NCBI GenBank assembly: GCA_949358305.1
Contig: OX442317.1
Span: forward strand, 14,700,491-14,760,490
DNA: 60,000 nucleotides
From: Strigamia acuminata
Lineage: Eukaryota; Arthropoda; Chilopoda; Geophilomorpha; Linotaeniidae
Direction: 5' to 3'
Positions 3,189-37,782 of the stretch are shown here, one piece after another. The stretch's first letter is position 1. The number at the start of each line of letters is the position of its first letter. The notes beneath the pieces are model-generated. The model saw only the letters and a program-made list of their open reading frames with translations. It was not told the origin of the DNA and searched no databases. A program made the translations under genes and the position numbers.

Positions 3189-3201
3189 GGGAGCTGTTTT
3201 T

Positions 3202-3225
3202 TGGTACCGTGATTCCAGGATTTCG
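3202..3225 (+). promoter_or_regulatory. E1 primer-binding site, tRNA-His-like
   Basis: TGGTACCGTGATTCCAGGAT begins 13 nt after the 5' LTR. The complement of the tRNA-His 3' end in animals starts TGGTGCCGTGA, so this matches with one change (A for G) and a small insertion. The match continues toward the T-arm as GGATT(T)CG. Primer identity is from knowledge of animal tRNA-His. Confidence 0.72.
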
Positions 3226-3572
3226 TGCACGTGTGTACAGCGCGCATGGAAAAGAGGTCATTTGGATGTTCAGCAAGTGATTCAAGTGGGTTGGTGCGTG
3301 CCAGTTGGTTCGTTTGTACGGCTGGTTCCGTGAGCGGCCGGCATCAAGTGCGCACGCCAGAGAGTCACGTGAGAGCGGCCATTGACGTCCTGAGTCTGCC
3401 AAGTCAAACACAACGCAATGTGCAAGTTGAACAGCTACAGCCTGAAAGAAGAAGAACATTTTTAGTTATTAAAGTGTATTTTTGGTGGGCTGTTTTCTGG
3501 GTTTTTGATGTGTTCCTTCTGGGGGGAGGGGAAGTGTGCTTTTTTGTATTTAAGTTAGCGTTTAAGTTTTGC

Positions 3573-3602
3573 ACTCCATATAACTGCTTAAAGCAGGGGA
3601 GT
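3573..3602 (+). other. Leader RNA hairpin shared by E1 and E4/E5
   Basis: ACTCC (3573-3577) pairs with GGAGT (3598-3602), and CTGC (3584-3587) pairs with GCAG (3593-3596), with ATATAA between the two stem halves on the 5' side. The E4 counterpart at 30757-30788 has the same layout but differs at one pair in each stem, with both sides changed. It is a candidate packaging, dimerisation or translation signal. Confidence 0.62.
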
Positions 3603-3685
3603 TTCTGTTTGAATTAAGTTAGAATTTAGTTTTGCCTTCCTGTTGTTGAGCTTGTCCAGGAGGTGTCAGTGTGGTGTGTACGAGT

Positions 3686-4653
3686 TGTTTCGAGCAACAG
3701 AAAGGAGGAAAGAGAGACCACAACTGCTCGTCAATTTGATAGTAGTTTGATTTTATGTGTTCGAAAATGTAAAGAAGAGTTACTAATTTCGGTCTTATAA
3801 TTGTATTATTTATTTAGCAAATATCTAATCTTTTTCTGTTGTAATAGGAATTTTACATGTCTTTTTTGTGTGCCAATTTTCAGTAAAGACAATGTTTGTT
3901 AGGTATTTTATCTCTTAGAATGACAAGGTCAAGGTTTAGGAATTTTTAGTCTTGTTTTCCAATGTTTTCATGCTATGTTTACCTATTTCTAAGTCTTGTC
4001 CTGTTCCCAGTTCAGTTGTGAAGGCGGAATGACGGGTTTGAAGCATCTGAGTTGCTTTAAAGGTGCATTGGAAAAGAAGGAATTGTTAATTTTGTAATGG
4101 ATTGCAATTAATGCATTTTTACAGTGTATTTGACTTGCTTTAGATGCGTTATTTGCATATTTAGTTAAGTTTATTCCTATTCTATTTGTTATAATTCTTT
4201 CCAATGATTTCTGTTAATTTTAGTTGATTTTATCTCTATTATGAGGCACAATGCAAGCTTTAACTTATGTTATTTATGAATTTAGTCACTAGGTGCCTCA
4301 TGAATTTGTTGTTGCTATAGAATTGTTGTTGTTATGAAGTTGTTACACTCTTGTTATGAAGAATTAGATGTAGTTATGTTGGATTTTGCCTCCATTTTAA
4401 TGTTTTAAAAAGGAATAAAAACATTATGTGGAATTTTCAACAACAAGCTTTATTTCCTTCAACACAAAGCATGATTGAGTAGGGAGAGTTAACCCCAAAC
4501 TCCCTGGAGCAGCTACAGTCAAGATCCATGGCAGAAACTCAAGTTACTTCACTTCTCCTCTCAGCTAAGCAAAGTATAGGCCTATGGGAAATTTGCCAAT
4601 AATTCCCCACCGCGTTACAACTCGTCGCATCACGGCAGTGGCGAGTTGCAACA
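3686..4653 (+). repeat. E2 5' LTR
   Basis: Starts TGTTTCGAGCAACAG and ends GAGTTGCAACA. The copy at 8904-9871 has the same length and no difference noticed by eye. AATAAA at about 4412-4417 is a plausible polyadenylation signal. The segment CCAGTTCAGTTGTGAAGG resembles the E1 LTR. A short open frame on the reverse strand is identical in both LTRs only because the LTRs are identical; it is not called. Confidence 0.95.
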
Positions 4654-4657
4654 TTTT

Positions 4658-4680
4658 TGGTACCGTGACCCAAGGATTTT
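4658..4680 (+). promoter_or_regulatory. E2 primer-binding site, tRNA-His-like
   Basis: TGGTACCGTGACCCAAGGAT starts 4 nt after the LTR end. It has the same TGGTACCGTGA core as E1 and the general tRNA-His complement shared by all elements in the window. Confidence 0.72.
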
Positions 4681-5822
4681 GTTGTTGCCAACCAGGATTT
4701 TCGTCCAGTTCTTCCAGTGGATTTCAGTGCACGTCATTGCATTTTTAGCCAGGTGTGTGACGTCAATTTCACGGTGATTTGCGTGTGTGTTCCCGACTTC
4801 ACAGTGAGGCAGTGTGTGGCATCTAGTTCGCAGTAAGCAGTGTGTGGTGCCGATTTTCGTGGTGTGAAGTGTGTGGCGACGCGTTTTTCGATTTATTTCC
4901 ACTGGATTATTGTCGCCAATTGCGACAGAAGTGTGTTTGTGCTGTGTCGTCCTTCGCAGGCGTCAGGGAGTTGATTCGTCAGTGGATTTTATGTCAAGTG
5001 TAACGAGTTCGGAGTCTTTCTACTGTGGCGGTCAACATAAGGAGACAAGCAAGCGATTTCCTGGTCAACAATTTGAGAAACACAACGCAATGTCAATCTT
5101 CAAGTTCATCTGCAGCTGAAAAAAGAACAAGATTAATTTTAATTCAATTGCTGTTAGAATTTAAGAATTATATTTATTTAAATTAATTCTTTATCTGATT
5201 TTTCAAGGAAGTTTCTGCCAATTTCGAGCTGTATTTGGGGAGTTTAAAAGGGGTTTTTTATGTCAATAATTTTAAATATAAAGTTATTATCTCTTAAGTG
5301 CGGAGCTATTGTATATGATAGCTAATTATCTCTTTTGTGCAGCGCTATTATAAACTATAGCTATTATCTCTTTGTGCGGGGTTATTGTAAAATATAACTA
5401 TTTATCTCTTTGTGCGGGGTTATTGTAAAATATAACTATTTATCTCTTTTGTGCAGTGTTATTGTAAAAGATAACTAATTTATCTCGGTTGTGCGGTTAG
5501 ATATTAATTATTAATTTCGAACTAAGTGCATTTTGGGGGAATTATCAAGACATTTATGCGGATAAGTTTATTTGTGCGGTCAATAATTCCGTCCCAGTGT
5601 ATTACGTATAGTGTGTCAAGTCAGATTGTCTGTGGCATTTCGGAGTTGAGTTTAGCATTTTATTTCGAGGTCGTTTTTCATTTGCACACCGCATTTGAAT
5701 TAACGTTAAGCAAGTATAAGTAAGAGTCTGTGAAGTTTGGAGAATATTCGTGGGGATTTAATTAGCAGTGATTGAGTTGTTGAATAGAATTTTTATTCTC
5801 ATTCTCTCTTTCTCGAGAATAA
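4681..5822 (+). other. E2 untranslated leader
   Basis: About 1.1 kb between the primer site and the Gag start. It holds a tandem hairpin array (5287-5500) and several short ATG-initiated frames (for example 4871-5119 and 5526-5723) with no recognisable domain. Multiple upstream ATGs imply splicing, an internal ribosome entry or another bypass for translation of the long ORF (inference). A pyrimidine-rich stretch precedes the ATG at 5823. Confidence 0.6.
5287..5500 (+). repeat. Tandem hairpin array in the E2 leader
   Basis: Five units of about 38-40 bp, each TTATCTCTT(TT)GTGC(G/A)G followed by a small hairpin, plus a degenerate sixth unit. Hairpins: AGCTAT/ATAGCT (5304-5323), GCTAT/ATAGC (5344-5361), GTTAT/ATAAC (5381-5398), GTTAT/ATAAC (5419-5436), GTTAT/ATAAC (5458-5475). 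The C-G pair of the first two units is a T-A pair in the last three, a compensatory change that favours an RNA structure. Confidence 0.75.
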
Positions 5823-8810
5823 ATGGCAACTGCAGCTGGTTTGACCGCGGAAGCAGCGGAAGAGAAAGAAACACAATGGCAAGCCAAGGCCCAAGGAGCA
5901 GAGGATCTGCTCTCGACATCTGCAAACGTTCTCGACGGGGGTGAGCTTGAAGCTCTCCACGCAACAATAGATGCGCAGTTGAGTGACCTTATTGATGAGC
6001 TCGCTGTCTTTAAAGACAAGATAGAACGTTCAGATTACCTGCTTAGTTTGAGACGTCTCGAAGACATTAGGACTAAGGTCAATCTTCTTAAGCAAAGGAC
6101 GAAATTTTCAAAACAGATGCAGGATAAGTTTGGGGCACATCCCGGCGGAAATACGCTAATGAATTCTGGATTTCTGAACAACTCCTCAATCATATCACGG
6201 AAGACTACAAAGCTTCCAAAGTTGACTCTGCAGAAATTCGACGGGAATCCGATGGAGTATAAGAGCTTCATGGATATGTTTTCAACCACAGTTGACGCCG
6301 ATGCCGAGTTATCGAACGTCGAAAAACTTCAATATCTTAAATCAAGCTGTATCGGGGAAGCTGAAGTGGCGATTAAGTCGTACCCACTTACTAACGATTC
6401 GTATTTAATGGCACTTAGCAGTTTAGAAGGACTTTTTGGGTCAGAAGTAGCCCAAAAGAACGCTCTGGCGAGGAAAATTCGTGAAGCCGAAGCAGTTAAA
6501 GATTTGTACCCAATCCAGCCAGTAAAATCTCTATTGACGTCCCTCACCGGTGCTTTCCGAACATTAGAACAGTTGAAGTTCCCAGTTACGACTACTGGAT
6601 TATTTCTAATCCCGGAATTATTGCGGAAGTTTCCACCGGAATTGGGAAGACGATTTCATAGGATTTACAAAGGAAACGTGGAAAACGTTAATTTATTTCT
6701 CGAATTTGTAGCAAGCGAAGTCAGAGTAGCAGAATTATCAGACGATAGCGTATTTACCAGTCAGAAAGTCACCAAGAAGAGTGAGAAACCAGCAACTAGA
6801 GAGCAAAAAGAAGAATTACGAGGGACCATGTCATCTTGCGCGGTTGCGCAAAATACGTCATTCGGGTCCAATACGAAAGAATCATTCAAACCAAAATCAG
6901 GTCCAGTCCGGAAATTGATCTGTGCCTTCTGTGAAGGAGATCATTTCAACAATAATTGCGACGCAAATCTGGAAGTTTCGGAGAAATACGACATCGTTAA
7001 GCGAAAACGTCTATGCTTTAATTGCCTGAGACCAAGCCATACAGTGGGTAACTGCCCTGTAAAATTTTGTTGCCGATCATGCGGTGGTCGACACCATTCT
7101 TCAATTTGTAACAGAGGTCATGCGGAAAAGCCACCTGATACCAAAGAAGAGAACGTCTCCGCCAACGTCTCGTTGTCGGTCTCAAGTGACGTCCAGCTAA
7201 TGGTTTTCACAGCATTGTTCGTCCGAAAGAGTGGCGAAACAATCCCAGTTCGTGGATTACTCGATCCGGGTAGTCATCGTTCATATATTACGAAGCGGTT
7301 AGCAAAGAAATTACACCTAAACAAGATTGAGACGTATCACACCATGACCCAGTGTCTGCTGAACAAGGAACCAGTTCCTACAACTCATGACGTGTTTAGA
7401 TTCGAGTTGCAGTCTCGTCACGACAAGCAGAAAGTGTCTGTATTTGCTCTTGATACCGACACACTTCCCAATATAAAGGGAGTGATAGATCACCAAACGC
7501 TGCAACAAATCAAGTCGTTTAATCTTGAGATGGCAGAACCACATCCCTCCGTGTCAGATGAGGTAGATGTCTTGATCGGAAGCGGAGCATGGTGGAAAAT
7601 AATTCAAGCGGGAACGAAGAGAATTAGTCCAGAATTAGGAATGATGAAAACAGTTTTTGGATGGATTTTAAACGGACAAATTAACTCAAAAGAGCCTTCC
7701 ATCTACAAAGACGATATCTCACTGGGAGATGTATCGTGTATGGCGATCGATTCTGGAAAGAAGATGACTTTCAACACTTCAAAAAAGGACAAAGGCGGGT
7801 TTGGACAGGCGAATTCCACATCAATGCCCGACGAGAAAAGCGAAAAGGGTGGAGTACGAGCAAAAGGCGTCATCGCTTCTCGTTTTGCCGCGAGCCGCTC
7901 TAGCGAGCTGGAGGTACGGCATCCTGACGTCCCCATCGAATTGGAAATGGATGGAAAGCGGACGTTTAAAGGGATAAGGTCGGGCAAGATGGCGATTTCT
8001 CAGAGTCCTGACACACTGGAGTCTACGGAAAAGAAAGGAGAATTTCCAAAAAATTTCAAAAAAGATGAAGAAAAGGGTTTAAGTAAATGGAGGAAGATAT
8101 TGAAATGGAGTCGCAAGAAACTCACCAATTCGCACAGAAGATCAAATGCAGTCACAAAGGCCACGGGAAATATACATTTAGTAATTGGCCCAATGTTTTC
8201 TGGAAAAACTACTGCTTTACTTAATGTAATCCGAAATGAAGAAGAAAATTCTTGCCTGCTTGTTAAGCATTTGACAGACGTTAGATATAGTAAAGATGAA
8301 ATGATTAGCCACACCGGACAACGACGTCCAGCGGTTCGGGTCGCGTCGTTACAGGAAATCAAGAAAATTGCGGAGTCGGTCAAGACGATAGGTATCGACG
8401 AAGGGCAATTTTTCGGAGACATCGATTCGTTTTCCGACAAAATGGCGAACGAAGGAAAGAATGTAATAATTGCCGCTTTAAATGGTGATTTTAAGAGACA
8501 GGAATTCAAGGCAGTATCTAATCTCATTCCACTAGCGGAAACTATTGTCAAACTTCATGCCAAATGCCACTTTTGTGGAAACCAAGCGTCGTTCACCAAA
8601 CGAATATCGGGTGAAACGCAAGTTCAGGTTGTGGGAGGAGAAGAGAGATACAAGCCGACGTGTCGTACCTGTTTTCAGAAATCAATCAATTCTATAGAAG
8701 TCAAGAGAAAGCTAATTAATGGAGCGGCACATTTAAGTTTAGCGATTTTGAATCGAAGATTACCTCCATGGGTGGCCAGTTTGATCCGCAAAAAATTGCG
8801 CTTACCTTAA
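5823..8810 (+). CDS. Gag-protease-thymidine kinase fusion polyprotein (995 aa)
   Basis: Residues 1-340 form a BEL/Pao Gag of the DUF1759 type, with an N-terminal helical region and the KLPKL-x-KFDG landmark also present in E4. Three CCHC-like knuckles follow (367-379, 398-411, 417-429). An aspartic protease of the DUF1758 type has its catalytic aspartate in LLDPGS (Asp481) and ends near FGWILNG (612-618). Similarity to the E4 polyprotein stops about there. After a basic linker (about 640-780) comes a whole type II thymidine kinase: Walker A GPMFSGKTT (789-797), a TDVRY motif (818-822), DEGQFF with catalytic Glu860, AALNGDF (884-890), zinc ligands Cys915, Cys918, Cys947 and Cys950, and a GGEERY substrate-loop motif (938-943). 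Thymidine kinase phosphorylates thymidine to dTMP. There are no introns, stops or frameshifts. The ATG at 5823 has G at +4 and is the first in this frame. Reverse transcriptase, RNase H and integrase are absent. Protease release of the kinase, or its packaging in particles, is possible but inferred. Confidence 0.93.
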   Translation: MATAAGLTAEAAEEKETQWQAKAQGAEDLLSTSANVLDGGELEALHATIDAQLSDLIDELAVFKDKIERSDYLLSLRRLEDIRTKVNLLKQRTKFSKQMQDKFGAHPGGNTLMNSGFLNNSSIISRKTTKLPKLTLQKFDGNPMEYKSFMDMFSTTVDADAELSNVEKLQYLKSSCIGEAEVAIKSYPLTNDSYLMALSSLEGLFGSEVAQKNALARKIREAEAVKDLYPIQPVKSLLTSLTGAFRTLEQLKFPVTTTGLFLIPELLRKFPPELGRRFHRIYKGNVENVNLFLEFVASEVRVAELSDDSVFTSQKVTKKSEKPATREQKEELRGTMSSCAVAQNTSFGSNTKESFKPKSGPVRKLICAFCEGDHFNNNCDANLEVSEKYDIVKRKRLCFNCLRPSHTVGNCPVKFCCRSCGGRHHSSICNRGHAEKPPDTKEENVSANVSLSVSSDVQLMVFTALFVRKSGETIPVRGLLDPGSHRSYITKRLAKKLHLNKIETYHTMTQCLLNKEPVPTTHDVFRFELQSRHDKQKVSVFALDTDTLPNIKGVIDHQTLQQIKSFNLEMAEPHPSVSDEVDVLIGSGAWWKIIQAGTKRISPELGMMKTVFGWILNGQINSKEPSIYKDDISLGDVSCMAIDSGKKMTFNTSKKDKGGFGQANSTSMPDEKSEKGGVRAKGVIASRFAASRSSELEVRHPDVPIELEMDGKRTFKGIRSGKMAISQSPDTLESTEKKGEFPKNFKKDEEKGLSKWRKILKWSRKKLTNSHRRSNAVTKATGNIHLVIGPMFSGKTTALLNVIRNEEENSCLLVKHLTDVRYSKDEMISHTGQRRPAVRVASLQEIKKIAESVKTIGIDEGQFFGDIDSFSDKMANEGKNVIIAALNGDFKRQEFKAVSNLIPLAETIVKLHAKCHFCGNQASFTKRISGETQVQVVGGEERYKPTCRTCFQKSINSIEVKRKLINGAAHLSLAILNRRLPPWVASLIRKKLRLP

Positions 8811-8903
8811 GGAGTCATTAGGGAGCTGATCCTAGGTGGATGAGAAGTTTTCAGATTGCTAAGAGGTTCTTCTTCACCTTCTTTTCTTTTCGGCGGCAAT
8901 CTC
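8811..8903 (+). other. E2 3' tail with pre-LTR pyrimidine/GGC motif
   Basis: Directly after the TAA, the same frame stays open for ten codons (GVIRELILGG) to a TGA at 8841-8843, possibly a relic of the former polyprotein end. Then a pyrimidine tract and CGGCGGCAATCTC lead straight into the 3' LTR. The equivalent position in E1, E3, E4 and E6 has the same layout instead of a classical polypurine tract. Confidence 0.55.
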
Positions 8904-9871
8904 TGTTTCGAGCAACAGAAAGGAGGAAAGAGAGACCACAACTGCTCGTCAATTTGATAGTAGTTTGATTTTATGTGTTCGAAAATGTAAAGAAGAGTTA
9001 CTAATTTCGGTCTTATAATTGTATTATTTATTTAGCAAATATCTAATCTTTTTCTGTTGTAATAGGAATTTTACATGTCTTTTTTGTGTGCCAATTTTCA
9101 GTAAAGACAATGTTTGTTAGGTATTTTATCTCTTAGAATGACAAGGTCAAGGTTTAGGAATTTTTAGTCTTGTTTTCCAATGTTTTCATGCTATGTTTAC
9201 CTATTTCTAAGTCTTGTCCTGTTCCCAGTTCAGTTGTGAAGGCGGAATGACGGGTTTGAAGCATCTGAGTTGCTTTAAAGGTGCATTGGAAAAGAAGGAA
9301 TTGTTAATTTTGTAATGGATTGCAATTAATGCATTTTTACAGTGTATTTGACTTGCTTTAGATGCGTTATTTGCATATTTAGTTAAGTTTATTCCTATTC
9401 TATTTGTTATAATTCTTTCCAATGATTTCTGTTAATTTTAGTTGATTTTATCTCTATTATGAGGCACAATGCAAGCTTTAACTTATGTTATTTATGAATT
9501 TAGTCACTAGGTGCCTCATGAATTTGTTGTTGCTATAGAATTGTTGTTGTTATGAAGTTGTTACACTCTTGTTATGAAGAATTAGATGTAGTTATGTTGG
9601 ATTTTGCCTCCATTTTAATGTTTTAAAAAGGAATAAAAACATTATGTGGAATTTTCAACAACAAGCTTTATTTCCTTCAACACAAAGCATGATTGAGTAG
9701 GGAGAGTTAACCCCAAACTCCCTGGAGCAGCTACAGTCAAGATCCATGGCAGAAACTCAAGTTACTTCACTTCTCCTCTCAGCTAAGCAAAGTATAGGCC
9801 TATGGGAAATTTGCCAATAATTCCCCACCGCGTTACAACTCGTCGCATCACGGCAGTGGCGAGTTGCAACA
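8904..9871 (+). repeat. E2 3' LTR
   Basis: The 968-bp partner of the LTR at 3686-4653, with no difference noticed by eye. It is followed by the GAGT duplication and the resumption of E1 internal sequence. Confidence 0.95.
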
Positions 9872-12119
9872 GAGTCAAGTCAAGCTGAGCGGGACAATGC
9901 AATTGTCTTCAAGGAGCTTGTGGTTGCAAGGTCGCATCATGTGGTTGGCACATCAGGACGATGAAGACGGCTGGACAGTTAGCGGTGCAAGCGGGTTGCT
10001 GGTCGGTGCAGACAAGTCAAAGGACAAGTCACGCTCCAGTCAACTGAGCATTAACGCCAAGTCGTACGGGAAGGTGGACGCCTGCCGTCAGGGCAGAAAA
10101 GAAAGAAGACAAGCTTTGCTTTTATTAGTTTAGAAAGAGGTTTGTTAAGATTGAGAGTTTTATCCAGGTGCTTTTGCGGTGTTTGGTTTTTTGGTTTTGA
10201 AGTTGATACAGGCAGTTATGTTTAACGTTTTACTGTGTGAGCAGACTCGGTGCTTTGCGTGGGAGCGACCTGAGAGTATGGTCCCCTGGCTCAAGCAATT
10301 TGAGAAAGAGCCACGCTCCTGAATTTTCGAAATAAGTTTGGTTATAATATTTTGAAAGGCTGTAAGCACTTGGACACTTCTCTCAGTCTAAAATTTTGTT
10401 TGCTTGTGTTTGAAGTTCTTTCTAGCTTTAAGAGTTGATTAAGTTTTGAGGTCAGGTCTATTGTGAACTGTTAGGTTGACTGACGGCAGATTGGCCATGT
10501 TTGAGGCTGATGAGAAGCGGTCCCGCGCTCGTTTGCTTGTTCTTTCGGTTGTGGCAATCGAGTGGTCGCTCCTTCTCCCCTACTACACTCAGCCAGTTAT
10601 ATTGGGTTGCGTGGGAGAGTGGAGGCGAGGGATCCCGTCTCAATGGCCGCCGTGTTTGTCCGCCAGCCTTTCAGTGGACTGACCACATGGAAGAGTGCGT
10701 TTTGATTGTATTTTGGGGGACTTCCGTATTATTTAGTTGATTGTTTAAGCAGGTGTTAGTGTGTGAGGTTTTTCAGAAGAACCTGTGCGTGGGTTGAGAT
10801 AAGATAAGCCACACTAGCTGTTTAATTAGAGAAAGCGGAAATTTAGGAATCAGTCCTCCATTCAGTCTCGTTTGTGATAAAAGGTTTTTGAGAAGTTACT
10901 GCTAAGAATTTGTAGATGTTCCCACTTCCAGCGTGTTGTACCTTTGTTTTAGTGCGTTCACAATTGGTTAGGAAGTTTGGATGCGTTACTGGGTTTGTCA
11001 TTATTTTCTCGGTGTAAACCTTTTAGTTATAAGTTAGTTCAGAGTTTTGGGGAAAATTGCTTGTTAAGTTTGCAGCCACCAAGCGTCTTTGCGAGGGCGC
11101 TTGTAGATCAGTTGGGTGGGTACCCCCCTTTTTGGAAAGTTAGTTACTGCATGTTGGGGCTTGTTCAGGGTGAAACGATCGTCCATTAGGGTCAGTCTTT
11201 CAAATTCGAGACAATTGATGTTAGTAAGTGCAGTCTCCACCTTGCACATTGTGTGGTTGGAAGGGGTATAAGGGCGCTTAATTGATCAGATCAGGGTTGT
11301 AAGAGCATTTTTCGAGACTCCAAAGTTGTAGAATTAGATATTAGAGGTTAACAGTCTTTAAATTTATTTTTTATTGAAAGTTGTCTTTATAAGAAATAGA
11401 AAGTTACATATTCGGGTTTTTTTTGTGCGATTAGTTAACCTGCTTGTTCGAGCACCCATTTGGCGCTTAGCCATTTGCGGTTGGCGGAGCAGAGTGCCGC
11501 GTTGACGAATGGAACAATGGTTGGTCAGCAAAGCCAGCGAGAGAGGTAGTGTTTGAGGATGTTTTAGAATTTCATTTTTGGAAAAAGAAACGCAGCACTT
11601 CTCTCTCTTTTGAAGACTTGTTGTTCCTGCGGTTTAAGTTAAGATAGTTTTCCGAATTTGTTTCTTAGGGAATTTAGTTGTAGCATAGTTAAGTAGTCCA
11701 CTCACAATGGATTCCAGTGTTGTCCCACACTCAGTTCTTGGATACATTCTGGGACTGGGGTTCAAAGAGCCAAGGCCTATTGCCTTGCAGTCAGAGTGGC
11801 AGTAGGAGAAGAAAGAGGACAATAAGCCCCGTTGGTTCGGATTAAGGTTAGAAAGAGCCAAAGAGAGATAAGTCTTATTTGTCAAAACAGAAAAGAGAGG
11901 TTGTTGAAGTACGCCGATAGGGCGGGGCATTCGTCAGTCAACCCTCAAATTCCCAAAGCTGCCTCGTGACGTTGCAATGTGTAACGTGATAAGCATGTGA
12001 GATCTCGTTACAAGAGTCGCGTTGGATAGGGAATTAGCATTAACATGTGAGTGTTGAGTTAACGGTCACTTGCATAGGTTCATTTTGCACTGCTAACCAA
12101 AGTCAGTCGAACTGAACAA

Positions 12120-29015: not shown

Positions 29016-30289
29016 TGTTGCAAACAACGTGGAATAATTTAGAAACTACTTTTATTGCCAATTTGTGTCTGAATAAATGTTTCCAAAGTGTGTTTTATTT
29101 TGCATAACATTTCAGTTTTTATTTACAGGATTTTTGCATTATTAAAATGTTTTTAATGCTTTCAGATACTGATGTTTGATGAAATGTGATATTCTATTGT
29201 TTATTGCATTTATTTCTAGTGTTTATTGCGTGATTTTGTGTTACTTTATTCATTTTCTATCAATTTGTGTGATTTCGGGTGAAATTTGGTGCATTTGTCG
29301 TTAAACAGTTCACTAGTGTTATTGACGTGACGTCATATTTCAAGTTCTAGTTCGGTTTTTGTTCAAACTTCTAACCTTTCGTTTGGACGGAATTTTGATG
29401 GTTAGAATTGTTTTTGACATTGTTTTAGACTAATTTGGGGGTGATCTGTTGATTCGTGCACTCTAATTTCGTCCCGGAACAGCCGTTTTTCTGTTACGAG
29501 CGATCGTGACGGACCCCGCATGTGCGTTGCCGTCCAAGATCGTTTCGTTCGGTTTGCGGTTGATTTCAAGTGTTCTTTCATTAAAACGTGTCTTGTTTGC
29601 GGGAAATTACATTTCCTGAACTTATTTACTTATTTGGTTTTGTGTGTGACTTTGAATTCAAACTTGATGATTATGTCATTTTGCTTGTCTCTGATTGGTT
29701 AGGCCCAATTGTCTGCTTAGCGATCACTGTTTTCGCTGTTTTCTCATTGTTTTGATTAACGAATTTTGTTGTTACGATAGACTTTATTATTCCTTAGTTT
29801 TTTGTGCTCATTTTGAGCTATTACACATTATTTTTAATACATTTCTCGTAATTTGTTGTCTTTGCTTGAAATTGCATTTCCTCCGTTTCCGTGGCAACGG
29901 AGTATTTCTTTATTGTAAATTGCCGACAATTGGTTTGGCGTGTGCCATCCTATTATAATGTGTAATTATTCAGTTGCCATTTTATATTTGATTAAAATAG
30001 TCGTGTTAATGTTAACTCTTACCTTTTCTGCTTTTGACCCATTTCCAATGTGTCCTGAGTAGAAAACCATTTTTCCCAGACTGGCCAATGGATCAGCAAA
30101 CACTTGGATACCATGCAAAAGTGTTTCCAACAGTTAAACCTTCATGTAACAGGAGATTTTGAGGCGAATCAAGTGCATTTCAACACGGTATACGTACGAA
30201 TTTCACTATACGATCGTTTGAGTTTGTTGGCGGGAGTTTCGAATCGCCACATCTCAGTTCTTCTCTGTTCCTGTTGACTGACCGCAACA
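29016..30289 (+). repeat. E4 5' LTR
   Basis: Starts TGTTGCAAACAACG and ends GACCGCAACA. A perfect TGACGTCA (CRE-type palindrome) lies at 29328-29335 and recurs in the 3' LTR. AATAAA occurs near 29072. Two short open frames (29520-29702, 29695-29958) recur in every copy of this LTR and show no domain. Confidence 0.96.
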
Positions 30290-30304
30290 TCGAATAAGAA
30301 TTTT

Positions 30305-30328
30305 TGGTGCACGTGACCAGGATTTCGT
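30305..30328 (+). promoter_or_regulatory. E4 primer-binding site, tRNA-His-like
   Basis: TGGTGCACGTGACCAGGATT then TCG, 15 nt after the LTR. It matches the complement of the tRNA-His 3' end (TGGTGCCGTGACCAGGATTC) apart from one inserted A and a later inserted T. Confidence 0.8.
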
Positions 30329-30338
30329 CTGCTTCTTG

Positions 30339-30905
30339 TGGGTTTTTTCCGGTTCATCATTTGATACGTTCAACCGTGCGTCTGGTGCGATTGACGGAAA
30401 TTACGTCTGTGAGTCGTCGTCTGCTAGAATGGTCGTCGTTCAACGTGGCAACAGCCACAACGGGGATTTATTTGGCGTCGATCACGAACATTTCTGTGCA
30501 AGCAACGAGATTCTTCGGTCGACATCTTGGATTACACAACGCGCTGTGCTGGAAAGCCGATTTGCCCCTGAAATAATTGCTTATTCTTGTGTTTTGCATT
30601 CAGTGCTTGTATTTTTAAGATTTTGGTTGCATGAGGGTATTGTATTGGATATTTCAAAGCTGTTTTTGCTGTTTCCTAAGCTAGTTTTGAGGGAAAATTC
30701 ACTGAAAGTGTATTTTATTGTGAATTTCTCAAGTGTTCTCTTGATTTTGTGCATGCATCTCCATATAACTGGCTTAACCAGGGGAGATTTAGATTTTTTG
30801 GAGTTAGAAACTGGTCAGTCTCTCATTGCAAGAGCTGTCAGTTATTATCGTGAATCTGATAGTGATTTTCTAGCGAGATTCGTTCCGTACGAACCGCAGA
30901 AATAA
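30339..30905 (+). other. Open reading frame in the E4 leader, doubtful
   Basis: An open frame of nearly 190 codons without an early ATG; the first in-frame ATG starts MVVVQRGN near 30429. It has hydrophobic stretches and no domain known to me. E5 keeps the frame open (57832-58434), but among three substitutions noticed at the 3' end two change the amino acid, unlike the Gag region, where most changes are silent. It is probably open by chance or recent descent. Confidence 0.25.
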
Positions 30906-31184
30906 TTCAAACTTGTGTAGGACTTTTTGAGTCACGTTTTTAATACGTGATCAAGGTCGCTCGTTTGTTTTAGCATCCTTGATTGCTAAAACACTCGATA
31001 TTCTTGTGCATTTTCAAGGTTTTTTGTCGTTTGGGCAAGAAAACTTTGAAAAATTCTGTTCTTTTAAAGTGAATGATTGTGAATTTTATTCTTTTCAAGT
31101 ATAAAGTTTAAGTTATATTCTTTTTAAGTTGAAAGCGAAGTGTTTTGTTCTTCAAAATATTATCTTCTGTTTCATAATTTACAG
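30409..31184 (+). other. Possible intron in the E4 leader
   Basis: GTGAGT at 30409 could be a donor, and a T-rich stretch ending TTTACAG at 31184 is a good acceptor, 13 nt before the Gag-Pol ATG. Removal would discard the upstream open frame and place the start codon near the RNA 5' region. Only the signals are seen; there is no evidence of use. The same signals occur in E5. Confidence 0.3.
30757..30788 (+). other. E4 leader RNA hairpin, counterpart of E1 hairpin
   Basis: ATCTCC (30757-30762) pairs with GGAGAT (30783-30788), and CTGG (30769-30772) with CCAG (30778-30781). Compared with E1, the outer stem has T-A where E1 has A-T, and the inner stem ends G-C where E1 has C-G, while ATATAA between the stems is unchanged. 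These are two compensatory changes in otherwise diverged sequence. Confidence 0.65.
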
Positions 31185-31197
31185 CCGTGAATTTGAG

Positions 31198-34100
31198 ATG
31201 GAGAGAGATAGAGATACAGAAACTTCCGAACGCGATTTACTCACTGTGGAGCAAATTGAAATACTAGAGACCAGGTGGGAAGCACAACTTTCATCTCTCA
31301 ACGACTTGCTGTCTTTGTCGGAGAAGACGAGCGATCCAGGAGAGTTAGAAGCGCTTCTGCTTACTGCAAATCTGAAAGAGACACGCGTTGTAAATGGCCT
31401 GAACGAGCTTCAAGTCTACTGTGAGCATGCGTTTTACCTTGAGAGTGTCGAGAAACTGGAATCATCACAAACGAGAGTGGAACTTCTCCGAAGAAGGTGG
31501 GAGGTTTCAAAGCGGTCTCTTCCAACCCTTGGAGGAAGACTCAACATGTCTACAGTTTCCGGTGCAAATACATCCTTGAATACTTCGACTTCTTTCCGCA
31601 AGAATTCCAAGTTGCCCAAACTTGAATCTGTAAAGTTTGACGGGGAGATAATCAAATACAAGACGTTTAAGAGCAACTTTGAAACTTCTGTGCATAATGA
31701 CCCAGATCTGAGCAGTGTTGAAAAGTTACAATACCTTCAAACTATGTGTACAGGTGAGGCTGCGGCTTTGATTTCCACCTTTCCTTTGATCGAGGAATCC
31801 TATGACTTGGCACGGGAAGAACTTGATCGTAACTATGGCGATGAGGATGCGCAACAGACGGCTCTCATCCAATCCATTCGAGACTTGAAGACTGTTTCAA
31901 GCATATACCCGACAAAGGTGTTGAAAGCAAATTTGACGAAAATTTCTTCAACAATACGACTTCTTGAGCAACTGAAGATTCCTGTACGGACATCTGGTGC
32001 ATTTCTGATGCCTGACATTCTTAGCAAGTTTCCTGCTCCAATGACTTTGCGTTTTTACCAAGTCCATGGACTGTCTTGCAAGAACATTTTGACTTTGCTT
32101 GACTTTTTTCAAAAGGAAGTAGCTATGGCAGAACGCACTGAAGCTGTTTCTCCTTCTGAAAAAGCAAAGAAGGAAAAGTCTGAAGTTGAAAAGGCTAAAG
32201 TTAAAGGATCCATGACGACTTGCACCGCGACGCAAGACTCAAAATCGTCTTCAAGCTCCAAAGTGAAGACAGAGTCGAGACAAGAGAACAGGTCTGCGAA
32301 TTCCAAGGCACTCAAGTGCATTTTTTGTCAAGAAGACCATTTGAGCGGTTCTTGCAAAAAGGAGTTCGAAATCAATGCAAAGATTGAATTGATAAAGAAA
32401 AACAGACTTTGCTTTAATTGTTTTCGAACAGGTCATCGAGTTGGTGACTGCAAAGTGAGGTTTTCCTGCAAGCATTGTGGCGGAAGACATCATTCAACCA
32501 TTTGTAAGAAGTCTGAGGTGAACAATTCTCCAAGTCCGACAGAGAAGCCAAAGGAGTCGCAAGTGACCACACACGTCTCGTGCGCGATATCCACTTCTCT
32601 TCAACTTATGATTTTTGTTGCTGACCTCAAAACCAAATCTGGAGGTTCACACCACATCCGAGGCATGATTGACCCGGGTAGCCATCGGTCATTCATTACA
32701 ACTGAACTGGTGAACCGACTAAAACTGAAGAAGTGCGGCAGTATTTCTGCGACCACACAACGGTTCAACGATTCTATGCCTGCTGCCACTGATTACGACG
32801 TATACAACGTTACTCTTCAAAGCAAGAATGACGCACAAAACTTCAAATTATCAATGCTTTCAGTGGAAAATTTGCCGAAAGTGCAAGGCATTTTGAATGC
32901 ATCGGTAATAGAAAAGGTGAAGAAGCTGAATCTTGAACTTGCCGAAGATCTGCCAGCCAAGACATCTCAAATAGACATTCTTTTGGGAGTTGATGCCTGG
33001 TGGAAAGTCATTAAAGATGGCAAAAAGAAAATCAACGACGATCTTGGACTCATAAATACGTTATTTGGATGGGTGCTTACAGGAGCAGCCGGAAATACGG
33101 ATTTATTCGAGGACGAGGCTGATTTGACTTCATGTTGTAATACTTGCAACATTGAAATCCATGAACAATTAGACAAACTTTGGAATTTAGAGGCAATTGG
33201 GATTAATGCTGGTGAAAAGGAATCCGATTTCACAAGAGATCGATTTGAAGCCACGACAAAACGTCTTGACGACGGAAGATACGAGGTGATGCTGCCTTTT
33301 AATGGACAAGAAACTGACTTGGACTCAAACTGGGAGCTCGCACTTAACCAATTAGCCAACACATTGAAGAGAATCGACTCAAATGACGATTATAAGAAGC
33401 GATATGACGACTCAATGTGGCAGTACATTGAAGAAAACCACGCTGAGGAAGTTCCAACTGAAGAACGGTTCCTAAAGAAAGGGATATATAACATTCCACA
33501 TCATCCAGTGATCAAAGAGGACCGGGAAACAACGAAATTCAGAGTCGTATTCAATGCGTCGTCTGCGAAAAAAGGAAAACGCTCATTAAATGACTGCCTT
33601 TTTCCTGGACCATCTTTGAATCCAGATTTGATATTGGTGATGGTCAGATTCAGATTGTATTGCATTCCAATCATTGCTGACATTAAACAAGCATTCCTCC
33701 AAGTGATGATAAACCCCACGCATAGGAATTTTCTGCGTTTTTTGTGGGTTTCGAGGCAATATTTCAAGAACCCCTATTCGTGGAAAAATTTGTGGAATAA
33801 TATTATGATTTTGAGAATGATAGTCGTACCATTTGGAGTTATTTCCTCTCCTTTTCTCCTGTGCGCAACAATTCGGAAACAAGCTGATCAATACAAGGAG
33901 ACACATCCGAAAGAAGTTGATGCACTTGACGCCGGGATATACATGGATGATTTAACTTCTGGAGGTGATCACACGACAGACACAACAAAACATTGTGAAG
34001 AATTAAAAATGATTTTAGATGATGGGAAACTCCCACTTGTAAAATGGGCAACAGCCAATGAAAAGGTTTTCAATGACATCAAAGAAAAGGGATTTCACAT

Positions 34101-36450
34101 GAGAAGTGACGGATTCTGTGAACAGGGAGTAATAAAAATGCTTGGAATTTTATGGGACACGCAAGAAGACGTCCTCATGTTCAGGATTCCACAAATAGAC
34201 ATTATTCCGAACACAAGACGTGAAGTTCTCTCTTTGGTAGCTTCCATTTTCGACCCGATGGGACTCATTTCTCCAGTCGTTTTGAAAATGAGACTCCTTC
34301 TTCAAGACATTTGTTTACGTACAAAGAACTGGGACGGAAGAATTTCGGACTCAGAAAAGCAAGAGATTGACGAATGGAGTCGAGACATCCAGAAATTAAA
34401 AGACTATAAAGTACCTCGATGGTTAGAAACCTATTCTAATGAAGAGTTGAGTATTGAAGTTTTCTGTGATGCCAGCACTAAAGCCTTTGGATGTGCAATT
34501 TTCATCGTCAACAACAAAGGAAAAAGAACTTTGCTACTCAGCAAATGTAGACTAGCCCCTGCAAAAAAGATTACCTTGCCTAGACTTGAATTAACTGCTG
34601 CGGTCGTTGGTGTACGAATGTGTCAGTATTTGACAAATAACTTTCTGCCAGGTTATCCAATCAAAACCATTCAATATTTTTCTGATTCCACCATAACTTT
34701 GGCTTGGATCAACTCGAAGAAAAATGAGTGGAAGCCTTATGTTTCTAACCGCGTTCAGGAAATTGTTTCATCGTCTGACGCAAGCCAATGGTCACATATT
34801 CCGACAGAGTTCAATCCTGCAGATTTACTTACACGACCACACGATGCAAAAACATTAATGACAAATAAACTTTGGTGGAACGGCGTGGACGTTTCTAAAA
34901 TCGAAAAAGTCGAGGTTGTGCAAGAAAAACTACCCGAAGAAGAAAAAAGAATTGTGGTTATGAATGTTCAAGTCAAAGAGACATTTATAAGCAAATTTTT
35001 CAAAAGATTTCGCAACTTCAACCGTCTGGTTAGAGTATTTTCGTACCTTTTGCGCTGGAAATCTCATCGTTTTCGCGGCGAAGATCTCGCGCAACGCGAA
35101 ATGGAATCTAGTCAAATTAGGATTCTTAAATTTTCACAAGAAATCTACTTTCGAGAAGAGATCGAAGCTGTGAGAAACAAGACTGAAGTTGAGAGATACT
35201 CCCCTTTGAAGAATTTCGAATATTTCTTAGATGAGGATGGACTTTTACGTTTGCGCAGCAGACTGAGATTGTCTTTGCTTTCATTTGACGAAAAATACCC
35301 GATTCTTTTGCATAACGAAAGTTGGGTAACTAGACTAATTATTCGCAAGATTCATCTTGATCTCATGCATGGAGATTTGAGTGAAACGCTTTATCGAATT
35401 CGTGAGAAATTTTGGGTTCTCCGAGGACGCAGGACCATTCAGACTGTGATAAGAGAATGTTCCGTTTGCAGAAGGACTAAACTTGCAAGAAATAATCCGT
35501 CTACTGGAGAATTACCGAAAGAAAGAGTAACCCCAGCAGCTCCTTTTCAACACACCGGAATCGATCATTTAGGACCTATTTTTGTGGGAAAGGACAAAAA
35601 ACGATTGAAGAAAACATACATTTTATTATTCACTTGTATGGTTACGCGAAGTTTACATCTCGAAGTGTCCGAAGATTTATCCACTGAGAAATTCTTATTG
35701 GCATTCAGACGATTTTGTGCTCGTTACGGTTGTCCAGCAAAAGTCTTCTCGGACAACAGTAAAACCTTTGAAAAAGGAAGTACACAAATTCAGTCATGGG
35801 GAAAACTGATTGGCCGTTCGGACATAAAAACATTTCTGTCTGAGAAAAGGATTGTATGGACATTTATCCCTCCGCTCTCACCGTGGATGGGAGGAGCTTG
35901 GGAGAGACTAGTCCGCTCAGTCAAGGATAAATTGCGGAAAACTTTATTGAGACACACTGTGGATTTAGAAACTTTACAAACCTTAGTTCTTGAGATCAGC
36001 TCTGTGTTGAATTCTCGACCTTTGTCGTATGTACACGAAAATATAGACGGCGGCAGAATCCTTTCACCTGAAAACTTTTTAACGGGAGGTATGCCGAAAT
36101 ACATGATCAACAAGACCTTGAATGCAATCAAGAAAAGTGACCTTCGAAAACTCGACAAGAAAAGAAGACAGTTTATTTGGGATTTTTGGAGTATATGGAA
36201 ACACAGTTACTTGATGCAGTTAAGAAACTTTTATGAGACTAAAGGAGATAAATCTTTTCAAAACCCCAAAATTGACCAGATTGTTCTTCTTGAAAAGATG
36301 GGAACCAACCCTTACTTTTGGCCTCTTGCCAGGATAAAACAAGTTTTTCCTGGCGATGATGGACTAATTCGCATCGTTAGTGTTGTGCTTCCCGATGGAA
36401 AAGAGTTGCGTCGATCTGTAAAGCATATCAGAGCCCTTGAACTTGATTGA
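31198..36450 (+). CDS. BEL/Pao Gag-Pol polyprotein, intact (1750 aa)
   Basis: The start is placed at the ATG at 31198 (GAGATGG, purine at -3 and G at +4); the frame is open further upstream but without ATG. Numbering from this Met: Gag of the DUF1759 type (about 1-345) and three zinc knuckles (374-386, 405-418, 424-436). The aspartic protease (DUF1758 type) has Asp492 in MIDPGS. Reverse transcriptase has ADIKQAF (Asp828) and YMDD (915-918). RNase H acidic residues are Asp1091 (FCDAS), Glu1131 (RLELTAA), Asp1163 (SDST) and Asp1209 (NPADLLT). The integrase zinc site is His1386, His1391, Cys1421 and Cys1424, and its catalytic triad Asp1456, Asp1519 and Glu1569. This single-frame order is typical of BEL/Pao. 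The products would assemble particles, copy the RNA and integrate the cDNA. No stop or frameshift was found, so the copy may be functional. It ends TGA 16 nt before the pre-LTR tract. Confidence 0.97.
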   Translation: MERDRDTETSERDLLTVEQIEILETRWEAQLSSLNDLLSLSEKTSDPGELEALLLTANLKETRVVNGLNELQVYCEHAFYLESVEKLESSQTRVELLRRRWEVSKRSLPTLGGRLNMSTVSGANTSLNTSTSFRKNSKLPKLESVKFDGEIIKYKTFKSNFETSVHNDPDLSSVEKLQYLQTMCTGEAAALISTFPLIEESYDLAREELDRNYGDEDAQQTALIQSIRDLKTVSSIYPTKVLKANLTKISSTIRLLEQLKIPVRTSGAFLMPDILSKFPAPMTLRFYQVHGLSCKNILTLLDFFQKEVAMAERTEAVSPSEKAKKEKSEVEKAKVKGSMTTCTATQDSKSSSSSKVKTESRQENRSANSKALKCIFCQEDHLSGSCKKEFEINAKIELIKKNRLCFNCFRTGHRVGDCKVRFSCKHCGGRHHSTICKKSEVNNSPSPTEKPKESQVTTHVSCAISTSLQLMIFVADLKTKSGGSHHIRGMIDPGSHRSFITTELVNRLKLKKCGSISATTQRFNDSMPAATDYDVYNVTLQSKNDAQNFKLSMLSVENLPKVQGILNASVIEKVKKLNLELAEDLPAKTSQIDILLGVDAWWKVIKDGKKKINDDLGLINTLFGWVLTGAAGNTDLFEDEADLTSCCNTCNIEIHEQLDKLWNLEAIGINAGEKESDFTRDRFEATTKRLDDGRYEVMLPFNGQETDLDSNWELALNQLANTLKRIDSNDDYKKRYDDSMWQYIEENHAEEVPTEERFLKKGIYNIPHHPVIKEDRETTKFRVVFNASSAKKGKRSLNDCLFPGPSLNPDLILVMVRFRLYCIPIIADIKQAFLQVMINPTHRNFLRFLWVSRQYFKNPYSWKNLWNNIMILRMIVVPFGVISSPFLLCATIRKQADQYKETHPKEVDALDAGIYMDDLTSGGDHTTDTTKHCEELKMILDDGKLPLVKWATANEKVFNDIKEKGFHMRSDGFCEQGVIKMLGILWDTQEDVLMFRIPQIDIIPNTRREVLSLVASIFDPMGLISPVVLKMRLLLQDICLRTKNWDGRISDSEKQEIDEWSRDIQKLKDYKVPRWLETYSNEELSIEVFCDASTKAFGCAIFIVNNKGKRTLLLSKCRLAPAKKITLPRLELTAAVVGVRMCQYLTNNFLPGYPIKTIQYFSDSTITLAWINSKKNEWKPYVSNRVQEIVSSSDASQWSHIPTEFNPADLLTRPHDAKTLMTNKLWWNGVDVSKIEKVEVVQEKLPEEEKRIVVMNVQVKETFISKFFKRFRNFNRLVRVFSYLLRWKSHRFRGEDLAQREMESSQIRILKFSQEIYFREEIEAVRNKTEVERYSPLKNFEYFLDEDGLLRLRSRLRLSLLSFDEKYPILLHNESWVTRLIIRKIHLDLMHGDLSETLYRIREKFWVLRGRRTIQTVIRECSVCRRTKLARNNPSTGELPKERVTPAAPFQHTGIDHLGPIFVGKDKKRLKKTYILLFTCMVTRSLHLEVSEDLSTEKFLLAFRRFCARYGCPAKVFSDNSKTFEKGSTQIQSWGKLIGRSDIKTFLSEKRIVWTFIPPLSPWMGGAWERLVRSVKDKLRKTLLRHTVDLETLQTLVLEISSVLNSRPLSYVHENIDGGRILSPENFLTGGMPKYMINKTLNAIKKSDLRKLDKKRRQFIWDFWSIWKHSYLMQLRNFYETKGDKSFQNPKIDQIVLLEKMGTNPYFWPLARIKQVFPGDDGLIRIVSVVLPDGKELRRSVKHIRALELD

Positions 36451-36465
36451 TGTGGGTTTTGCCGA

Positions 36466-36508
36466 CTTCTCTCATCTCTCTTCTCTCTCTTTCTCGCTGG
36501 CAATTCGT
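36466..36508 (+). other. E4 pre-3'-LTR motif
   Basis: A long pyrimidine run (TCTCTTCTCTCTCTTTCTCG) then CTGGCAATTCGT abuts the 3' LTR. It has the same layout as the other four elements: pyrimidines followed by GG-C-A-rich sequence, with no obvious polypurine tract. Confidence 0.6.
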
Positions 36509-37782
36509 TGTTGCAAACAACGTGGAATAATTTAGAAACTACTTTTATTGCCAATTTGTGTCTGAATAAATGTTTCCAAAGTGTGTTTTATTTTGCATAA
36601 CATTTCAGTTTTTATTTACAGGATTTTTGCATTATTAAAATGTTTTTAATGCTTTCAGATACTGATGTTTGATGAAATGTGATATTCTATTGTTTATTGC
36701 ATTTATTTCTAGTGTTTATTGCGTGATTTTGTGTTACTTTATTCATTTTCTATCAATTTGTGTGATTTCGGGTGAAATTTGGTGCATTTGTCGTTAAACA
36801 GTTCACTAGTGTTATTGACGTGACGTCATATTTCAAGTTCTAGTTCGGTTTTTGTTCAAACTTCTAACCTTTCGTTTGGACGGAATTTTGATGGTTAGAA
36901 TTGTTTTTGACATTGTTTTAGACTAATTTGGGGGTGATCTGTTGATTCGTGCACTCTAATTTCGTCCCGGAACAGCCGTTTTTCTGTTACGAGCGATCGT
37001 GACGGACCCCGCATGTGCGTTGCCGTCCAAGATCGTTTCGTTCGGTTTGCGGTTGATTTCAAGTGTTCTTTCATTAAAACGTGTCTTGTTTGCGGGAAAT
37101 TACATTTCCTGAACTTATTTACTTATTTGGTTTTGTGTGTGACTTTGAATTCAAACTTGATGATTATGTCATTTTGCTTGTCTCTGATTGGTTAGGCCCA
37201 ATTGTCTGCTTAGCGATCACTGTTTTCGCTGTTTTCTCATTGTTTTGATTAACGAATTTTGTTGTTACGATAGACTTTATTATTCCTTAGTTTTTTGTGC
37301 TCATTTTGAGCTATTACACATTATTTTTAATACATTTCTCGTAATTTGTTGTCTTTGCTTGAAATTGCATTTCCTCCGTTTCCGTGGCAACGGAGTATTT
37401 CTTTATTGTAAATTGCCGACAATTGGTTTGGCGTGTGCCATCCTATTATAATGTGTAATTATTCAGTTGCCATTTTATATTTGATTAAAATAGTCGTGTT
37501 AATGTTAACTCTTACCTTTTCTGCTTTTGACCCATTTCCAATGTGTCCTGAGTAGAAAACCATTTTTCCCAGACTGGCCAATGGATCAGCAAACACTTGG
37601 ATACCATGCAAAAGTGTTTCCAACAGTTAAACCTTCATGTAACAGGAGATTTTGAGGCGAATCAAGTGCATTTCAACACGGTATACGTACGAATTTCACT
37701 ATACGATCGTTTGAGTTTGTTGGCGGGAGTTTCGAATCGCCACATCTCAGTTCTTCTCTGTTCCTGTTGACTGACCGCAACA
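36509..37782 (+). repeat. E4 3' LTR
   Basis: The 1274-bp partner of 29016-30289, ending CCGCAACA before ACTG and satellite. Confidence 0.96.

What the first reader, a model, noticed from the sequence alone, without database searches (positions are those of the whole stretch)
5823..8810. A retrotransposon polyprotein in which reverse transcriptase, RNase H and integrase are replaced by a thymidine kinase
One unbroken 995-codon frame joins BEL/Pao Gag, zinc knuckles and aspartic protease to a full TK1-type kinase (Walker A 789-797, DEGQFF 859-864, four zinc cysteines 915/918/947/950). The frame is intact and flanked by LTRs that look identical, with a target duplication, so this is a mobile unit and not a chance juxtaposition. 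Thymidine kinase makes dTMP, and a local dTTP supply could favour reverse transcription in particles or in non-dividing cells. Absence of introns in the kinase suggests capture from mRNA. I know of no described LTR element carrying a thymidine kinase.
Basis: partly seen in the sequence, partly recalled or inferred. Interest (0 to 1): 0.95.

Follow-up and report, generated by a model that had tools for sequence, protein, structure and literature searches.

The report
Jumping gene carrying a thymidine kinase
A virus-like jumping gene in an animal genome has swapped its copying enzymes for a DNA-building-block enzyme, thymidine kinase, and dozens of related copies, mostly with full-size genes, sit in the same genome, which suggests that the enzyme helps the element spread.

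Summary
Window 3686-9871 is a 6.2-kb LTR element: identical 968-bp LTRs, TSD GAGT, one 995-codon frame joining BEL/Pao Gag, zinc knuckles and protease to a complete TK1-type kinase (Pfam TK 1.8e-54; model matches human TK1). No RT, RNase H or integrase was found between the LTRs.

It is not single. The same genome holds 44 TK matches 94-100% alike (own copy included; 37 in full-size frames) and a second family, 59% alike in Gag-PR and about 55% in TK, with 52 TK matches (47 in full-size frames); only part of the candidates were scored. Four of four copies checked have different, perfect 4-bp TSDs. The kinases of both families form one clade: one capture is simplest. TK evolves under purifying selection (dN/dS 0.12, interval 0.07-0.19), like Gag and protease; the linker is looser.

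Best reading: a persistent non-autonomous BEL/Pao lineage, moved in trans by autonomous relatives, one of which lies in this window. The kinase is kept as a working enzyme, probably carried in particles to raise dTMP for reverse transcription. Activity, packaging, helper and donor are inferred. My paper searches listed no LTR element with a thymidine kinase. Host unnamed.

The parts
3682..3685 (.). target-site duplication GAGT, left
3686..4653 (+). 5' LTR, 968 bp, TG...CA
   Evidence: 100% identical to 3' LTR
4658..4675 (+). candidate primer-binding site TGGTACCGTGACCCAAGG, same style as in elements A and C of this window; the tRNA was not identified
   Evidence: sequence only
4654..5822 (+). 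leader without a long frame, with a 39-bp tandem repeat at 5287-5496
5823..8810 (+). Gag-PR-TK polyprotein, 995 aa
6237..6668 (+). BEL Gag domain (DUF1759), residues 139-282
   Evidence: E 4.8e-15
6921..7109 (+). three cysteine/histidine knuckle-like clusters, residues 367-429
   Evidence: also in the autonomous BEL of the window
7113..7742 (+). aspartic protease region, about residues 431-640, LLDPGSHRSYI at 7257-7289
   Evidence: (below Pfam cut-off); dN/dS 0.076
7743..8162 (+). fast-evolving linker, residues 641-780, with islands VSCMAIDS (7731-7754, at its edge) and FAASRSSELE (7884-7913) and a basic, tryptophan-bearing stretch (8079-8123)
8163..8687 (+). thymidine kinase TK1-type domain, residues 781-955
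   Evidence: dN/dS 0.12
8700..8807 (+). C-terminal tail after the kinase, about half identical between the two families
   Evidence: predicted helices
8904..9871 (+). 3' LTR, 968 bp
9872..9875 (.). target-site duplication GAGT, right
29016..37782 (+). autonomous BEL/Pao element C (LTRs 29016-30289 and 36509-37782, TSD ACTG; Gag-PR-RT-RH-INT frame 31129-36450), candidate source of RT and integrase

Best explanation
It is a member of a long-lived lineage of non-autonomous BEL/Pao LTR retrotransposons. An ancestor lost RT-RNase H-integrase and gained, in frame behind its protease, a TK1-type thymidine kinase; this most likely happened once, before families 1 and 2 split. SHOWN: the architecture, mobility (many copies, separate TSDs at the sites read, identical LTRs), joint persistence of Gag-PR and TK in two diverged families, purifying selection on TK, and an abundant autonomous BEL in the same genome. 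INFERRED: the element's RNA is made from its LTR; Gag-PR-TK is made as one polyprotein and enters particles; RT and integrase come in trans from an autonomous BEL with similar LTR ends, candidate primer-binding site and TSD length; the kinase phosphorylates thymidine to dTMP in or beside the particle, so that dTTP is less limiting where the host pool is low. This parallels the dUTPase of some retroviruses.
For: Intact 995-aa frame and TK match; predicted fold like human TK1, TM 0.94 by target, rmsd 1.4; of 60 ungapped columns that are at least 90% one residue in 86 other TKs, 50 are kept, including Walker A Lys, DEGQFF and the four zinc Cys. Own-genome TK search, 150 scored of 208 candidates: 44 matches at 94-100% (window's own included), 37 in frames of 995/1002 aa; 52 at 53-55%, 47 in frames of 1009/1013 aa. 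Gag-PR search, 69 scored of 1267: 43 family 1 and 26 family 2 places. Perfect, different 4-bp TSDs in 4 of 4 copies examined (GAGT, CCGC, TCAC, CCAT). dN/dS of TK 0.119 (bootstrap 0.066-0.186) between window copy and L046, against linker 0.448 (0.292-0.734); TK 0.217 (0.085-0.499) between two family 2 copies. TKs of families 1 and 2 form one clade, 96/94. Autonomous BEL C: 60 of 64 scored matches (1133 candidates) at 97-100%, 45 of those 60 in frames of 1777-1781 aa, on the same stretches of C1, C5, C11 and C13.
Against: No transcript, protein or enzyme data. Ten of the 60 conserved TK columns differ, and a further one is a gap in the window TK; among the ten are the Glu of the TTEL helix (A in family 1, K in family 2) and the D of ALDG (N in family 1), so substrate or activity could have shifted. 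The one autonomous BEL compared shares only 37% of Gag-PR and no closer RT-bearing relative was seen, so the true helper is not identified. No typical polypurine tract is visible before the 3' LTR (pyrimidine-rich stretch instead, also in A and C). The protease matches are under Pfam's cut-offs, and in family 2 no protease model matched at E 0.1. TK makes only dTMP; two more host kinases are needed for dTTP (established knowledge). One genome only.
Confidence: 0.6

Rival explanations
1. The kinase is kept as an active enzyme but works in the host cell rather than inside particles: for example it raises the cell's dTMP in resting germ-line or somatic cells, or offsets a dNTP-lowering host defence.
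For: Same selection data. The loose linker with short conserved islands could hold a protease site that frees the kinase; this is not shown.
Against: It stands in full-size Gag-PR-TK frames in both families (37 of 44 and 47 of 52 TK matches by frame size), which by default places it with assembling Gag.
Confidence: 0.2
2. The kinase fold is kept for a non-catalytic reason, such as a stable, zinc-bound scaffold for particle assembly, or nucleotide binding.
For: Some conserved TK positions are lost; the tail next to the kinase is shared by families 1 and 2.
Against: Walker A, DEGQFF and the zinc Cys are kept in the family 1 and 2 copies read, as expected for catalysis.
Confidence: 0.12
3. A passenger: a host gene fragment carried along by chance, like transduced gene pieces of maize Bs1, intact only because the copies are young.
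For: Scored copies of family 1 are very alike.
Against: Persistence in two families with saturated synonymous sites and about 55% TK identity; dN/dS far below 1.
Confidence: 0.04
4. Origin rival: the kinase came not from host mRNA but from another mobile or viral TK. The genome carries two more TK groups (families 3 and 4) that share a shortened loop with families 1 and 2.
For: All four groups form one clade, 99/93, with spacing Walker A Lys to D.R of 23 (families 1-3) or 20 (family 4) residues against 25 in 84 of 84 measurable others, 2 of 86 not measurable. Families 3 and 4 are themselves multi-copy, and their frames read here are intronless.
Against: They could equally be the host's own TK1 lineage and its copies; the host was not identified and the branches are long.
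Confidence: 0.4
5. Assembly join or chance juxtaposition.
For: None found.
Against: Dozens of copies on many contigs with Gag and TK matches in one 995-aa frame, and a second family.
Confidence: 0.005

Closest known systems
BEL/Pao LTR retrotransposons (Belpaoviridae)
   Same: LTRs TG...CA, leader, Gag (DUF1759), zinc knuckles, aspartic protease in the same order; TSD length as in the autonomous BEL of this window
   Different: no RT, RNase H or integrase found; a TK1-type kinase and a new tail instead
Transducing retroviruses with gag fused to a captured host gene (recalled); maize Bs1 (passage in PMC7264820)
   Same: captured cellular gene carried by an LTR element; in the retroviral cases in frame behind gag, with helper (recalled)
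   Different: here the fusion is old, multi-copy, in two families and under purifying selection; the captured enzyme is one of nucleotide supply, not growth control
dUTPase-bearing retroviruses and rotifer LTR elements (passages in PMC2427051, and PMC5408684)
   Same: a nucleotide-metabolism enzyme built into the polyprotein; for retroviral dUTPase, expected packaging near RT, and in non-primate lentiviruses need in non-dividing cells
   Different: the dUTPase stands beside RT there and does not replace it; dUTPase removes dUTP, whereas TK would make dTMP
Non-autonomous LTR elements that keep gag (TR-GAG type, recalled)
   Same: Gag kept, pol missing, moved in trans
   Different: protease and an added enzyme are kept under selection

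Membership tests
BEL/Pao (Belpaoviridae) | LTRs flanking the element, with TSD | tested here: met
BEL/Pao (Belpaoviridae) | BEL-type Gag and protease | tested here: met
   DUF1759 above cut-off; protease below Pfam cut-off but aligned with the autonomous BEL
BEL/Pao (Belpaoviridae) | RT, RNase H and integrase | tested here: not met
   no match between the LTRs; hence filed as a non-autonomous derivative only
BEL/Pao (Belpaoviridae) | 18-nt primer-binding site complementary to host tRNA-Arg or -Gly (ICTV profile, whole text read) | not tested
   candidate TGGTACCGTGACCCAAGG at 4658-4675; tRNA not matched
BEL/Pao (Belpaoviridae) | polypurine tract before 3' LTR | tested here: inconclusive
   pyrimidine-rich stretch instead, also in elements A and C
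BEL/Pao (Belpaoviridae) | LTRs of 0.2-1.2 kb, whole element 4.2-10 kb | tested here: met
   968 bp and 6186 bp
TK1-type thymidine kinase | Walker A, DEGQFF, four zinc cysteines, whole domain | tested here: met
TK1-type thymidine kinase | TK1 fold | tested here: met
   predicted model only, pLDDT 83.9, best match 1xbt
TK1-type thymidine kinase | phosphorylates thymidine | not testable with these tools
   needs an assay
gene-transducing, helper-dependent retroelement | captured cellular gene replacing pol, mobilised in trans | tested here: inconclusive
   replacement and mobility shown; helper inferred; donor unresolved

The most novel reading that the evidence does not exclude
An obligate two-part retroelement system: one element (Gag-PR-TK) supplies particles and a nucleotide-salvage enzyme, the other (autonomous BEL) supplies RT and integrase, so that the TK element is not a mere parasite but improves reverse transcription for both, and has been kept for this through the split into two families.
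Probability: 0.25. Interest if true: 0.92.

Novelty: new variant of a known kind. Interest (0 to 1): 0.83.

Why it matters
Reverse transcription is limited by dNTP supply in resting cells (established knowledge). Some retroviruses carry dUTPase; an LTR lineage that gave up its whole pol for a thymidine kinase, kept it under selection and multiplied would be strong evidence that precursor supply limits retrotransposition. It would also show a stable gag-enzyme fusion with a division of labour between element families, and makes both points testable with one small enzyme domain.

Tried and rejected
Leads that failed. P0002, far the best hit of the kinase query (251 bits), is a tandem double TK, not a polyprotein. 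The only protein of 547-1741 aa with a TK match was a 605-aa Trebouxia protein (1 of 283 candidates); TK is its only precomputed Pfam domain. A 1999-aa frame with TK on C130 is an artefact of a run of N. Viral-contig scans with the polyprotein and the kinase confirmed nothing. I tried to type families 3 and 4: at the two places of family 4 read, it lies in stretches with much internal repetition, whose type I could not settle. The Pfam odorant-receptor search meant to place the host did not complete. No place with an RT-bearing frame size was seen among the 69 scored Gag-PR places; 1198 of 1267 candidates there were not scored. Considered and rejected: neutral passenger, segmental duplication (different TSDs and flanks in 4 of 4), assembly error.

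Limits. The dN/dS values are Nei-Gojobori counts on existing copies; synonymous change between families 1 and 2 is saturated in Gag, the knuckle region, PR and TK, so only the closer pairs give ratios there. In one search the Gag row for L046 (0.28) includes misaligned sequence from before its truncated 5' end; one search repeats it on residues 246-360 (0.134). In the family 2 pair the intervals for PR, linker and tail reach above 1. For the careful tree I left out 34 of 94 rows (long branches, the seven poxviruses, near-duplicates); the quick tree with all 94 gives the same groups, with 88 for families 1+2, 94 for 3+4 and 96 for all four. One search used 85 of the 120 proteins listed (1097 passed there) plus P0001, chosen by me. 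Of the genome copies I read the full frame of family 1 in the window and of two family 2 copies (L044, L045), plus two partial ones (L046, L047), and the LTR flanks of three more; frame sizes of the others are the tool's. L009-L038 were fetched but not read one by one.
Full report
WHAT IS THERE. The window carries, at 3686-9871 on the + strand, an LTR element with 968-bp LTRs that are identical at every base, TG...CA ends and the 4-bp target duplication GAGT. Between them lie a leader of 1169 bp and one frame of 995 codons (5823-8810). Pfam finds the BEL Gag domain DUF1759 (E 4.8e-15) and a whole thymidine kinase domain (residues 782-951, E 1.8e-54); the protease models match only below their curated cut-offs. 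The Gag-protease part aligns over 641 residues at 37% with the 1773-aa polyprotein of an autonomous BEL/Pao element in the same window (31129-36450); the alignment ends near residue 639 of the TK element, before the RT region of the autonomous one, and no pol match lies between the LTRs of the TK element. The autonomous element has Pfam matches to DUF1759, DUF1758, Peptidase_A17, integrase zinc-binding and DUF5641 above cut-off, and to RVT_1 just below it (27.2 against 29.6 bits).

SETTING. The window has five arrays of a 140-147-bp satellite. Between and in them stand LTR elements A (LTRs 1610-3188/14847-16425), B (18823-19857/25817-26851), C (the autonomous BEL), D (43952-45870/51786-53704) and a second, cut copy of C from about 56543; the TK element sits in the 5' part of A. 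A, B and D have no frame of their own over 200 aa.

MANY COPIES. The genome behind the window (G000, 237.5 Mb, 157 contigs) was searched. With the kinase part, 150 of 208 candidates were scored: 44 matches at 94-100% identity (family 1, the window's own included; 37 in frames of 995 or 1002 aa), one at 73%, three partial ones at 80-84%, 52 at 53-55% (family 2; 47 in frames of 1009 or 1013 aa without stop), five at 44-45% (family 3) and 45 at 49-50% (family 4) (sorted and counted by me from its table). With the Gag-protease part, 69 of 1267 candidates were scored: 43 places of family 1 (37 in frames of 995 or 1002 aa) and 26 of family 2 (24 in frames of 1009 or 1013 aa). So the PR-TK junction is neither an assembly join nor unique. 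In the three further LTR pairs that I read, and in the window, the target duplications are perfect, 4 bp long and all different (GAGT, CCGC, TCAC, CCAT), which shows separate insertions. The LTRs of these four copies match the window LTR at 100% (one with a slightly lower score). Matches of families 1 and 2 are concentrated in a few stretches (C1 64.2-66.5 of 67.0 Mb, C5 12.3-15.5 Mb, C8 6.8-7.5 Mb, C9 0.3-1.1 Mb, C11 0.1-0.6 Mb, C13 7.9-10.3 of 10.3 Mb, small contigs; a few on C4, C6 and C7), while family 4 is spread along the contigs.

THE KINASE IS UNDER SELECTION. Between the window copy and L046 (78% identical in TK) dN/dS is 0.119 for TK (bootstrap 0.066-0.186), 0.134 for Gag 246-360, 0.037 for the zinc-knuckle region, 0.076 for protease, but 0.448 for the linker and 0.369 for the tail. 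Between two family 2 copies TK gives 0.217 (0.085-0.499) and the linker 0.668 (0.325-1.994). Across families synonymous sites are saturated in Gag, PR and TK while TK keeps 55% identity. Of 60 ungapped columns that are at least 90% one residue among 86 other TKs, the window TK keeps 50, including the Walker A lysine, DEGQFF and the four zinc cysteines; the ten lost ones include the Glu in TTEL and the Asp in ALDG, and at one further such column the window TK has a gap. The predicted model of residues 746-995 (pLDDT 83.9) matches human TK1 1xbt with TM 0.94 by target and rmsd 1.4. Outside the kinase both families share a tail of about 36 residues (half identical) and two short islands (VSCMAIDS and FAAS.SS.LE), candidates for processing or packaging signals; this is inference.

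ONE CAPTURE. In the careful tree (60 of 94 rows) families 1 and 2 form one clade (96/94), families 3 and 4 another (99/93), and all four one clade apart from the other TKs sampled (99/93); two unnamed metagenome proteins (P0007, P0021) come next to it with 84/82. Families 1-3 have 23 and family 4 has 20 residues between the Walker A Lys and the D.R motif, against 25 in 84 of 84 measurable others, 2 of 86 not measurable. Families 1 and 2 therefore most likely descend from one Gag-PR-TK ancestor. Whether the donor was the host's TK1 or another mobile TK such as family 3 or 4 is open: a scale-insect TK1 (P0065) used as query found family 3 as its best match (51%), and no row pointed to an intron-bearing host TK1 (150 scored of 199 candidates, rows not all read).

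HOW IT LIKELY WORKS. Shown: mobile, multi-copy, intact, selected. Inferred: without RT and integrase it must be moved in trans. The autonomous element C is abundant (60 of 64 scored matches at 97-100%, 45 of these in frames of 1777-1781 aa; 1133 candidates in all) and lies in the same chromosome stretches; its two LTRs in the window are identical, begin TGTT and end CAACA like those of the TK element, are flanked by a 4-bp duplication (ACTG) and followed by a candidate primer-binding site of the same style (TTTTTGGT...GTGACC). The protein fuses the kinase to Gag, so it would enter particles by default, as is expected for the dUTPase of retroviruses, which non-primate lentiviruses need in non-dividing cells (PMC2427051, passages). 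A particle-borne or nearby thymidine kinase would make dTMP where the host's supply is low. Activity, packaging and benefit are untested.

KNOWN OR NEW. BEL/Pao elements carry gag and pol with PR, RT, RNase H and integrase, some an env-like gene (PMC8742986, whole text); the 2011 survey of BEL/Pao in metazoan genomes does not hold the word kinase in its main text (PMC3118150, term search and passages). Rotifer LTR elements with captured enzyme ORFs (dUTPase, exonuclease, esterase; PMC5408684, passages; no 'kinase' or 'thymid') and plant elements with extra ORFs (PMC7264820, passages; no 'kinase' or 'thymid') are the nearest precedents I saw. Searches of the open paper library for thymidine kinase with retrotransposon, LTR retrotransposon, BEL, gag, transposable element or Belpaoviridae, and for nucleoside kinase with LTR retrotransposon, listed no such element (listings only, and searches listed 15 of 90 and 10 of 186 papers). 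The protein search found no second Gag-TK fusion, but repeats are often masked from protein sets and lengths were limited. I call it a new variant of a known kind: a helper-dependent BEL/Pao derivative with a captured, selected nucleotide kinase.

HOST. Not named. (TTAGG)n stands at the first base of C1, the repeat known from arthropods (recalled); of the nine BEL relatives that carry an organism name, eight are insects and one a nematode.

Noticed in passing
G000 C3:1814500-1823500 (L049), C5:11752700-11761700 (L050), L041-L043: Family 3: a TK1-like frame of 220-226 aa in one exon at five places (three read), within stretches 91-99% alike over 2 to 4.6 kb or more; at two places a second frame (about 420 aa, no Pfam match) stands beside it.
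   Followed up: partly
G000 C1:3663500-3681000 (L040, L051), C3:35415500-35431300 (L052, L048), L039: Family 4: a free-standing TK frame (190 aa in the tool's count at 42 of 45 places) spread over the genome; at the two places read it lies in stretches several kb long, 98% alike, next to internally repeated blocks of unknown type.
   Followed up: partly
window 18823-26851 and 1610-16425: LTR elements A and B have LTRs over 99.9% identical and no frame of their own over 200 aa, share patches at 73-77% on opposite strands and have BEL-like candidate primer-binding sites: large, largely non-coding BEL-like derivatives.
   Followed up: partly
window 43952-53704: Element D, LTRs 1919 bp, 99.95% identical, no frame over 197 aa.
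   Followed up: no
window, before the 3' LTRs of the TK element, A and C: Pyrimidine-rich instead of purine-rich stretch before the 3' LTR in all three.
   Followed up: no
L047 (G000 C7:113700-116700): A copy with an 855-aa frame from which about residues 749-886 (end of linker and first part of the kinase) are missing in frame; 90% alike to the window copy in Gag-PR.
   Followed up: no
window 1-1560, 16426-18822, 26864-29017, 37781-43951, 53705-56544: 140-147-bp satellite arrays; families 1, 2 and element C cluster in a few chromosome stretches, perhaps pericentromeric.
   Followed up: partly
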